Shown here one piece after another: positions 30,015 to 53,297 of a stretch of 56,421 nucleotides of DNA (positions are counted from its first letter, which is position 1; each line of letters begins with the position of its first letter). Below the pieces are notes generated by a model, which worked only from the letters and a program-made list of their open reading frames with translations, was not told the origin of the DNA and ran no database searches. Location: positions 1 to 56,421 of the forward strand of contig CADCGC010000008.1 of assembly GCA_902800905.1 (NCBI GenBank), in the 5' to 3' direction. Made by a program: the position numbers and the translations under genes. Source of the stretch: an uncultured Erysipelotrichaceae bacterium (lineage in GTDB: Bacteria > Bacillota_I > Bacilli_A > RFN20 > CAG-826).

Positions 30015-30371
30015 CTATATCCCAACTGCTAAGAGGATGATTTTCACTACTGACGCGACTAACATCGCTCCTAGTAATGAATCCATCACTATCGCTGTAA
30101 TCCTTATTGATTTAAGCGTGCTTTTTCTATTGTTAAGTGAGAATAAGAATAGAACAAGACTCACCGCCGCAATAGCAACATAGATGAAGAGAATCATCAC
30201 CACTCCTAGTCCAGCAAACAAAGCAACAAATGGAGCGGCAGCTGGATCTTCTTCAGCCACCTTAATAGAAGACCACCACACTGGATAAAGTGCGATAGCT
30301 AATATAGCGTTAATAACTAAAAATATCCCAATAATAACAGTTGAAGTAACTCTTGGTTTGTCGTAATTCAT
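30015..30371 (-). CDS. small three-helix membrane protein, unknown function
   Basis: A 118-residue protein with three clear hydrophobic segments (about 13-33, 45-75 and 90-116) and very few charged residues. There is no recognisable domain. The ATG at 30371 (MNYDKPRV) has no strong ribosome site, so the start is less certain. It lies alone in the island between rpoC and rpsL, with its own terminator, and is divergent from the small-peptide locus at 30.5-30.8 kb. Confidence 0.7.
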   Translation of the reverse strand: MNYDKPRVTSTVIIGIFLVINAILAIALYPVWWSSIKVAEEDPAAAPFVALFAGLGVVMILFIYVAIAAVSLVLFLFSLNNRKSTLKSIRITAIVMDSLLGAMLVASVVKIILLAVGI

Positions 30372-30435: not shown

Positions 30436-30504
30436 ACAACTATTTTCTTTTTACTTTTTAAAAATTTTTTACAAAAAATCGAAAAAATCGACTCTTAGTA
30501 TAGT

Positions 30505-30634
30505 GAGGGGACTTGATTAATCCTCTCGCTTGGAGACATCTCGAAAGGGGTGTTATCTAATAAGGTCTTTGTGGTTTCTTTCCTTCTTTAGTGCATCCCG
30601 AGAACGGGGTGCTCCAAGAAAAGGAAAGGAGGGC
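30505..30634 (+). ncRNA. highly structured 5' leader of the small-peptide mRNA
   Basis: Four helices can be read directly. GAGGGGA (30505-30511) pairs with TCCTCTC (30521-30527). CTTGGAG (30529-30535) pairs with CTCCAAG (30612-30618). ACATCTC pairs with GGGGTGT around a GAAA loop (30536-30553). GCATCCC pairs with GGGGTGC (30593-30612). In addition CTTTCCTT (30578-30585) can pair with AAGGAAAG (30621-30628), crossing the long helix as a pseudoknot and covering the upstream part of the ribosome site AAAGGAGGG (30625-30633). The promoter is uncertain: a -10-like TATAGT lies at 30499-30504, but no good -35 is seen. Confidence 0.6.
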
Positions 30635-30640
30635 ACAGCA

Positions 30641-30715
30641 ATGGAAACATTGTTAATACTTCTTATTTTGTGTCTATTAGTGCACGTAATAAAAGCCCCA
30701 TCTGATAGAAGATAG
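30641..30715 (+). CDS. 24-residue hydrophobic peptide, candidate type I toxin
   Basis: A very short frame: ATG at 30641, TAG ending at 30715, preceded by AAAGGAGGG at 7-8 bp. The peptide starts METLLILLILCLLVHVI (a single membrane-spanning stretch) and ends KAPSDRR, a short charged tail. That is the shape of type I toxins (Fst, Ldr, Ibs, TxpA classes), though I see no direct sequence match. The in-frame upstream extension to 30530 would run through the structured leader and is unlikely. A minus-strand RNA overlapping its 3' end (30690-30746) is predicted. Alternatives are a leader peptide or a small membrane-protein subunit. Confidence 0.5.
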   Translation: METLLILLILCLLVHVIKAPSDRR

Positions 30716-30746
30716 GGCCACCACCTATTTAAAGTAAACCACAACT
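30690..30746 (-). ncRNA. predicted antisense RNA overlapping the 3' end of the small-peptide gene
   Basis: A promoter on the minus strand (30753-30781) would start transcription near 30746. The RNA would end at a good intrinsic terminator: GCCC.ATCT, loop, AGAT.GGGC (30718-30695, one mismatch) followed by TTTTATT (30694-30688). This gives an RNA of about 55-60 nt. It is complementary to the last 25 or so bases of the peptide frame and to the 3' untranslated region. The convergent 3' overlap is like TxpA/RatA or Fst/RNAII. Confidence 0.5.
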
Positions 30747-30752
30747 AATAAG

Positions 30753-30781
30753 ATTTTACAAGTCTAGAATATTGTTAACAA
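30753..30781 (-). promoter_or_regulatory. promoter of the predicted antisense RNA
   Basis: -35 TTGTTA (30776-30781), 17-bp spacer, -10 TAAAAT (30753-30758). The -35 lies inside the palindrome at 30768-30785. Confidence 0.5.
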
Positions 30782-30785
30782 TATT
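30768..30785. repeat. 18-bp perfect palindrome
   Basis: AATATTGTTAACAATATT. On the plus strand it is followed by TGTGTTTT, so it could form a weak terminator for the peptide mRNA. On the minus strand it overlaps the antisense -35 and could be an operator. Confidence 0.6.
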
Positions 30786-30858
30786 TGTGTTTTCAAAGAC
30801 TAATACAAAAAAACTCCAATAGTTATATTTTTATTTTTTTCTTTAATCATATTATATA

Positions 30859-30917: not shown

Positions 30918-31382
30918 ATGAAAACATTAATTATGTTAAGCGCCATTCCCGCTTCCGGAAAATCAACCTGGGCAAAGGAATATCAAAGAACCCACCCAAA
31001 TACTTATATCGTAAGTAGTGATGACATTAGGGTGGAAATATGTGGCACATATCAAGACCACTCTAGACAAGCTGAAGTCTGGGCGTTATTTGAAAAGAGA
31101 ATTCATGAATATGGGGCGAGAGAAAATGCGACCGTAATTCTTGACGCTCTTAATGATGTTAATCCAGTAAGACTTAAATATCTTAAAGGTGCAACTGAAT
31201 TTGACAAAAAAATATTAGTTCTCTTTCCATCAACCTTGGAGAAAAGCCAAAAATATAATGGACAAAGAGAAGAAGAAGTCCGTGTACCACCAGATATCTT
31301 AATTGGATTGTTTAATAAATTTGAAGCACCTAATCAAGAGGTATTAGATCTTGTTGATGAGGTTATAGAAGTTAATTGGTAA
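30918..31382 (+). CDS. P-loop ATPase/polynucleotide-kinase-like protein (AAA_33 type)
   Basis: A 154-residue protein of the small P-loop kinase group (AAA_33, T4 polynucleotide-kinase-like). It has Walker A AIPASGKST (residues 9-17), VSSDDIR after strand 2, and ATVILDALNDVNPVRLKYL. The middle and end (FPSTLEKSQKYNGQREEEV) match the lid region, where arginines contact phosphate. The substrate could be a nucleic-acid 5' end or a small metabolite. AAGGAG precedes the ATG. It is one of few plus-strand genes and ends at a bidirectional terminator shared with the convergent nucleotidase. Confidence 0.85.
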   Translation: MKTLIMLSAIPASGKSTWAKEYQRTHPNTYIVSSDDIRVEICGTYQDHSRQAEVWALFEKRIHEYGARENATVILDALNDVNPVRLKYLKGATEFDKKILVLFPSTLEKSQKYNGQREEEVRVPPDILIGLFNKFEAPNQEVLDLVDEVIEVNW

Positions 31383-43326: not shown

Positions 43327-43413
43327 CAATATACAGTGAGAATAAAATGTATTTTTCTTCACCTAGGTAACATTATTAAGACTCAAACGTCCGTTACTGT
43401 CTTTGGTATATTG
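43327..43413 (-). promoter_or_regulatory. ribosomal protein L10 leader (rplJL autoregulation)
   Basis: In the 143-bp gap between rplA and rplJ, CAATATAC (43413-43406) pairs perfectly with GTATATTG (43334-43327). This closes a domain that contains AAAGACAGTAAC, a CTTAATAAT stretch and GTTACC (GTAAC/GTTAC hairpin) followed by AGGTGAAG. Position, length and the AGACAG...CTTAAT...GTGAAG pattern match the L10 leader class, which binds the L10-L12 complex and represses rplJL. Confidence 0.75.
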
Positions 43414-43426
43414 AAATCTGATTTAA

Positions 43427-53177: not shown

Positions 53178-53220
53178 TTTAAAAAGCCCTCCGCCTGTCG
53201 TAGTAGTTAGGCAGCTGGCT
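53178..53220 (-). terminator. riboswitch-controlled terminator
   Basis: On the minus strand AGCC (53220-53217) and GCCT (53212-53209), both part of the aptamer 3' strand, pair with GGCT (53188-53185) and AGGC (53196-53193), followed by TTTTT. Terminator and aptamer cannot form at once, so ligand binding should allow read-through. Confidence 0.75.
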
Positions 53221-53297
53221 ATCTTAACAATATAAGACCCTATAGTTTTGCGTCACTAGATTGCTCTAGTTTTGCTTTTATCATAACAATTTTGCGT
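53191..53297 (-). promoter_or_regulatory. c-di-GMP-I (GEMM-I) riboswitch
   Basis: The minus strand shows the class hallmarks in order: GCAAAA, then stem CTAGA/TCTAG with a GCAA (GNRA) tetraloop, TGACGCAAAACTATAGGG, stem TCTTA/TAAGA, and GATAGCCAGCTGCC. The ligand-contacting base before CAAA (position 20 in the Vc2 aptamer) is G, as expected for c-di-GMP and not the A of cGAMP-sensing variants. The outer P1 helix (about 53291-53282 with 53191-53204) is weak, with G-U pairs and mismatches. The riboswitch lies between a good promoter and a three-gene surface-protein operon. Confidence 0.9.

What the first reader, a model, noticed from the sequence alone, without database searches (positions are those of the whole stretch)
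30505..30795. Unlabelled type I toxin-antitoxin-like locus: 24-residue membrane peptide, pseudoknotted leader and convergent antisense RNA
The stretch between the small membrane protein and the kinase holds a tiny hydrophobic frame (30641-30715) with a strong ribosome site. Its leader has at least four helices plus a pseudoknot that covers part of that site. On the other strand there is a promoter with 17-bp spacing (TTGTTA/TAAAAT) and a GC-rich intrinsic terminator, giving a roughly 57-nt RNA complementary to the 3' end of the peptide mRNA. Short hydrophobic toxin, occluded ribosome site and cis-antisense RNA are the three marks of type I systems such as TxpA/RatA and Fst/RNAII. Peptide and leader match no family I recognise, so this could be a new one.
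Basis: partly seen in the sequence, partly recalled or inferred. Interest (0 to 1): 0.82.

Follow-up and report, generated by a model that had tools for sequence, protein, structure and literature searches.

The report
Competence-linked toxin peptide with antisense RNA

Summary
The 24-residue frame, its ribosome site, the structured leader and the convergent terminator are real and conserved. The family occurs in 16 of 19 genomes of the genus, up to 7 matches per genome, and in four other genera of the family, with no Pfam, NCBIfam or Rfam match. The frame is under coding selection (pN/pS 0.34; 0 of 100 column shuffles as low). Nearly every genus copy has a convergent minus-strand promoter (TTGACA-17-TACTTT in relatives) running straight into a terminator hairpin whose U-run is the reverse of the peptide's Ile-Ile-Lys codons. 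Fourteen degenerate loci have lost the toxin start, 12 of them keeping the antisense promoter, and none shows the reverse: a toxin-antitoxin signature. New here: the toxin's own promoter carries a palindromic box found at only 11-16 sites per well-assembled genome, before comEA, dprA, recA, radC and several classes of such modules. In another genus the box has changed, yet toxins and com genes still share it. Most likely a new type I toxin-antitoxin family under late-competence control. Toxicity and transcription are untested.

The parts
30491..30510 (+). promoter box ACTCTTAGTATAGTGAGGGG (imperfect palindrome, AT-rich centre) shared with recA, comEA, dprA and other toxin modules
   Evidence: 14 sites in the genome, 0 with the reversed control pattern; downstream genes
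30511..30640 (+). structured leader of the peptide mRNA (5' end inferred)
   Evidence: leader fold z -3.3 in the window copy; covarying hairpin in relatives' leaders
30625..30632 (+). ribosome-binding site AAAGGAGG
   Evidence: conserved in alignment A1
30641..30715 (+). 24-residue hydrophobic peptide, predicted toxin
   Evidence: pN/pS 0.34 across 18 distinct copies
30694..30719 (-). terminator hairpin of the antisense RNA, overlapping the last peptide codons
   Evidence: hairpin present in 23 of 23 copies
30688..30724 (-). predicted antisense RNA (antitoxin), about 37 nt, ends inferred
   Evidence: conserved promoter plus terminator
30731..30761 (-). antisense promoter: TTGTAA (30761-30756) and TTTACTTT (30738-30731)
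   Evidence: block AAAGTAAACCA nearly invariant in A1; TTGACA-17-TACTTT in relatives

Best explanation
The locus is a type I toxin-antitoxin module of a new family. A 24-residue membrane peptide is translated from an mRNA with a long structured leader, made from a promoter box used by the late-competence genes. A roughly 40-nt antisense RNA, made from a constitutive-type convergent promoter and consisting of little more than its own terminator hairpin, is complementary to the last codons and stop region of the peptide mRNA. In growing cells the antisense RNA would keep the peptide off, most likely by duplex formation at the 3' end and degradation as in TxpA/RatA, possibly helped by convergent transcription. 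When competence switches on, toxin mRNA rises with comEA, dprA and recA and may outrun the antisense RNA, giving membrane depolarisation or growth arrest in competent cells. Shown by sequence: coding selection, antisense promoter and terminator conservation, shared promoter box, antitoxin-only remnants. Inferred: transcription, toxicity, mode of repression, and the consequence in competent cells.
For: Homologs in 16 of 19 genus genomes and in 4 other genera. pN/pS 0.34 in frame against 0.81 for shuffled columns, 0 of 100 as low. Hairpin in all 23 aligned copies and antisense promoter block in nearly all, while sequence and peptide C-terminus vary; native hairpins average -13.0 against -10.1 kcal/mol for arm-swapped chimeras. 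Fourteen loci without ribosome site and start; 12 keep the antisense -10 element at its place, 10 of them with a -35 of at least 5/6 at 17 nt; no toxin-only remnant away from contig ends. The promoter box lies before comEA, dprA, radC and recA and, in changed form, before comEA, dprA, recA and the toxins in genus g26, with zero control matches.
Against: No expression or toxicity data. In the window copy the antisense -35 is weak (TTGTAA, 19 nt from TACTTT or 17 nt from TTTACT). Specific ribosome-site occlusion is not above chance in most copies. A ~40-nt antisense RNA is unusually short. Two of the 14 remnants have lost the antisense promoter as well. Competence genes were recognised by HMM or by similarity of translations; competence has not been demonstrated in this lineage.
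Confidence: 0.72

Rival explanations
1. The peptide is a secreted killing or signalling peptide of the competence programme (bacteriocin-like), and the antisense RNA only tunes its expression.
For: The same regulon holds a peptidase C39 protein and a 60-61-residue possible GG-leader peptide, so peptide export may be part of the programme.
Against: The 24-mers have no GG leader and no evident signal cleavage site; charged C-terminal tails and antitoxin-only remnants fit an internal toxin better.
Confidence: 0.12
2. The peptide is a non-toxic small membrane protein that modulates the competence machinery, with an antisense RNA that sets its level.
For: Shared promoter box with comEA and dprA; purifying selection.
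Against: Several unrelated peptide classes share the same design, copies are multiplied and scattered, and remnants keep the antisense unit after losing the coding start, which is hard to explain without toxicity.
Confidence: 0.12
3. The stretch is a leader or attenuator of the downstream AAA kinase gene (30918-31382).
For: It lies directly upstream on the same strand.
Against: Eleven kinase orthologs inspected in other genomes have no module upstream, and other copies sit beside other genes.
Confidence: 0.02

Closest known systems
TxpA/RatA (Bacillus subtilis)
   Same: convergent genes overlapping at their 3' ends; hydrophobic toxin; antitoxin does not cover the start site (PMC4147584)
   Different: TxpA has 59 residues with a ~75-nt RNA overlap (PMC4147584); here 24 residues, an antisense RNA of about 40 nt reaching into the coding end, no sequence match, competence-type promoter
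Fst/RNAII (par of pAD1) and Fst-Sm/srSm of Streptococcus mutans
   Same: small hydrophobic peptide, convergent antisense RNA, hairpin terminator between them (PMC3543317)
   Different: Fst systems pair through direct repeats at the start region and share a bidirectional terminator outside the coding region (PMC3543317, PMC4147584); here the hairpin lies in the last codons and has a T-run on one strand only; no Pfam match
TisB/IstR-1 (Escherichia coli), from own knowledge
   Same: short membrane toxin with a structured leader, induced as part of a DNA-related regulon
   Different: SOS (LexA) rather than a competence-gene box; IstR-1 is divergently encoded and acts on the leader
toxTA of Haemophilus influenzae (PMC6957337)
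   Same: toxin-antitoxin pair in the competence regulon; toxin-part deletions common among strains
   Different: type II (protein antitoxin), CRP/Sxy control

Membership tests
type I toxin-antitoxin system | short hydrophobic peptide that is translated | tested here: met
   conserved frame under coding selection with ribosome site; translation itself not observed
type I toxin-antitoxin system | antisense RNA gene overlapping the toxin mRNA | tested here: met
   conserved convergent promoter and terminator; RNA not observed
type I toxin-antitoxin system | toxicity of the peptide, relieved by the RNA | not testable with these tools
   only indirect: 14 toxin-broken loci, most with an intact antisense unit
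Fst/par family | sequence match to known toxin profiles | tested here: not met
   no Pfam or NCBIfam match to any Fst-type or other type I toxin model for the window peptide or relatives at E up to 1
TxpA/RatA family | sequence relation to TxpA or RatA | tested here: not met
   no Pfam, NCBIfam or Rfam family above cut-off
late-competence regulon of this lineage | promoter box shared with com genes in the same genome | tested here: met
type I system with occluded ribosome site | ribosome site paired more than by chance | tested here: inconclusive
   paired in all 17 copies tested, but in most no more than with shuffled leaders

The most novel reading that the evidence does not exclude
This lineage runs a dedicated competence programme in which several unrelated type I toxin classes, often in tandem, are fired from the same promoter box as the DNA-uptake genes, so that competent cells pause or sacrifice themselves; antitoxin-only loci protect against toxin modules acquired by transformation.
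Probability: 0.35. Interest if true: 0.85.

Novelty: new variant of a known kind. Interest (0 to 1): 0.72.

Why it matters
Type I toxins are usually found on plasmids, prophages or under SOS control. My searches of the held paper library found a competence-regulated type II system (PMC6957337) but none of type I. If true, it ties membrane toxins to natural transformation, offers a testable reason why they persist on chromosomes, and may give one of the shortest antisense antitoxins. Antitoxin-only remnants scattered through the genomes would be natural evidence for anti-addiction.

Tried and rejected
Rfam at gathering and relaxed thresholds: no credible family. Collection scans with the antisense promoter pattern gave two genome hits in unrelated phyla, taken as chance and not inspected further, and no viral hit. 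No plasmid or phage match. The peptide alignment was too short for a protein-pattern scan. Specific ribosome-site occlusion: not above shuffled leaders. The idea that the promoter box is an RNA hairpin with compensating arms: no support in permutation. Kinase leader: rejected by kinase orthologs without the module. A first promoter scan of the remnants that was not anchored on the -10 gave spurious sites and was replaced. Order-wide search: only three borderline matches outside the family.

Full report
What is there. The window holds a 24-codon frame at 30641-30715 behind AAAGGAGG, in the space between a small membrane protein gene (30015-30371, minus) and an AAA kinase gene (30918-31382, plus; AAA_33). 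The stretch 30500-30720 folds better than dinucleotide shuffles (z -5.3). On the minus strand a hairpin at 30719-30694 is followed by a U-run.

It is a family. A DNA search finds two paralogs in the same genome and relatives in the genus. A second search from a relative's copy gives 11 of 19 genomes, and a 141-position sequence profile gives 16 of 19 genus genomes and six genomes of four other genera in the family, with up to 7 matches per genome. Order-wide, only three more matches near E = 0.001 appear. Some of the weaker family matches belong to other peptide classes or are remnants. Nothing was found in plasmids, phages or IMG/VR with the searches used. The peptides (consensus METxLILxLLCLLVSIIKGPxRKG) match no Pfam or NCBIfam model.

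The frame is coding. Over 17 codons in 18 distinct copies pN/pS is 0.34, against 0.81 on average when columns are shuffled (minimum 0.48 in 100 shuffles); the third codon position varies most. The shuffle does not model the tree, but the effect is large.

The antisense unit. Downstream of the stop codon the block TTAAAGTAAACCA is nearly invariant: on the minus strand it reads TGGTTTACTTTAA. In most relatives TTGACA stands exactly 17 nt upstream of TACTTT. In the window genome and in G005 the TTG-like hexamer stands 19 nt from TACTTT/A (17 nt from TTTACT; read from the sequences), and in the window it is TTGTAA. The start point would be near 30724. The RNA then runs into a hairpin found in all 23 copies, followed by UUUUAUUA or a close variant. 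That U-run is the reverse complement of ATAATAAAA, the codons of the conserved Ile-Ile-Lys. The hairpin arms change between copies (PTRKD, PSPRG, PNPKG at the peptide end), and native hairpins are more stable than arm-swapped chimeras on average (-13.0 against -10.1 kcal/mol; 80 of 326 chimeras at least as stable).

Antitoxin-only remnants. Of the profile matches away from contig ends, 14 start behind the start codon. Reading them shows leader and toxin start replaced by other sequence. Twelve keep a -10 element at the conserved place, ten of these with a -35 of at least 5/6 at 17 nt, and a terminator hairpin; L144 and L151 have lost the promoter. The reverse case, toxin start without antisense unit, was not seen; the single 3'-truncated match is cut by a contig end. 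The profile is somewhat richer in its 3' half, so the asymmetry may be overstated, but toxin-broken loci with an intact antisense unit are what an anti-addiction role predicts. Haemophilus influenzae toxTA shows frequent toxin-part deletions too (PMC6957337).

The promoter. The stretch 30491-30510 (ACTCTTAGTATAGTGAGGGG) is one of 14 sites in the genome that match the box with up to 3 mismatches, while the reversed control has 0. Downstream lie recA, dprA, comEA, a peptidase C39 protein and an ABC transporter (the comEA call rests on the Pfam match of its ortholog L098). In three relatives of the same genus that are at least 94% complete (G001, G009, G018) the variant CTCTTTATATAATGTAGGG has 12 sites each with 0 controls, before comEA, dprA, radC, a possible GG-leader peptide, the C39 protein, a YhcG-type nuclease, and toxin modules. 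In genus g26 the box reads CCTTCGTAATATATGAAAGG (16 and 11 sites, 0 controls) and again lies before comEA, dprA, recA, the C39 protein, an ABC transporter, the GG-type peptide and three toxin peptides; in G043 two toxin units stand in a row directly before dprA (g26 genes named by similarity of their translations, not by a new HMM scan). Toxin and com promoters have thus changed together between genera, which I take as strong evidence for one regulator. No lexA or uvr gene was seen among the sites inspected, so SOS control is less likely. The box is an imperfect palindrome with an AT-rich centre, and its right arm is the ribosome site in com genes; whether it is a sigma-factor site, an operator or an RNA hairpin is open.

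Several peptide classes. Besides the window class (A), the same box drives class B (METGNALVCLILFVIALVALAIIFKR; antisense TTGATT-16-TATAAT), class C (MKEIIVALFEIIIILLIIKKDPPSDKR; TTGACA-17-TATCTT) and class D (MSSNKMTVIILILEIVISILTIIIKALR; TTGACA-17-TACATT), often as tandem pairs B+A or C+D (promoters of B-D read by eye). Independent peptide classes with the same architecture argue that the architecture is selected.

Not a kinase leader. Eleven kinase orthologs inspected in other genomes carry no module upstream; in G011, the closest (86% identity), the same small membrane gene and kinase stand side by side without it.

Leader. Relatives' leaders contain a hairpin with changes on both sides of three pairs (columns 49-55 with 61-67), so structure is selected to some degree, but the ribosome site is generally no better hidden than with shuffled leaders. 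I therefore do not claim occlusion, and the pseudoknot was not tested.

Verdict. Most likely a new family of type I toxin-antitoxin modules wired to late-competence genes. Toxicity, transcription and natural competence itself in this unnamed lineage are untested. Paper searches found no type I system under competence control in the held library, which lacks most subscription papers.

Noticed in passing
L009/L023 (G000 contig 43), L008, L010: Second small-peptide class (METGNALVCLILFVIALVALAIIFKR) with its own convergent promoter and terminator, in tandem before the window-type module on contigs 43 and 28.
   Followed up: partly
L062, L066, L067, L069, L091: Two further peptide classes (C and D) in tandem behind the same promoter box, each with a convergent TTGACA-type promoter.
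   Followed up: partly
window 30491-30510; sites: A palindromic promoter box that differs by genus yet is shared by late-competence genes in each; its right arm is the ribosome site in com genes. Nature (sigma site, operator or RNA hairpin) unknown.
   Followed up: partly
L094, L101, L173, L178; L071, L026, L168: A 60-61-residue possible double-glycine-type peptide and a peptidase C39 membrane protein in the competence regulon, suggesting peptide export during competence.
   Followed up: no
L092, L100, L111; L065, L076: YhcG/DUF1016-type nucleases and ORF6N-domain proteins carry the competence box, an unusual company for com genes.
   Followed up: no
L144 and L161: The same antitoxin-only remnant, with the same foreign sequence before it, is present in two species (G012 and G003), so it has been kept or moved as a unit.
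   Followed up: no
window 53207-53286 (-) and 43333-43424 (-): c-di-GMP-I riboswitch and ribosomal L10 leader, both above Rfam gathering score.
   Followed up: no
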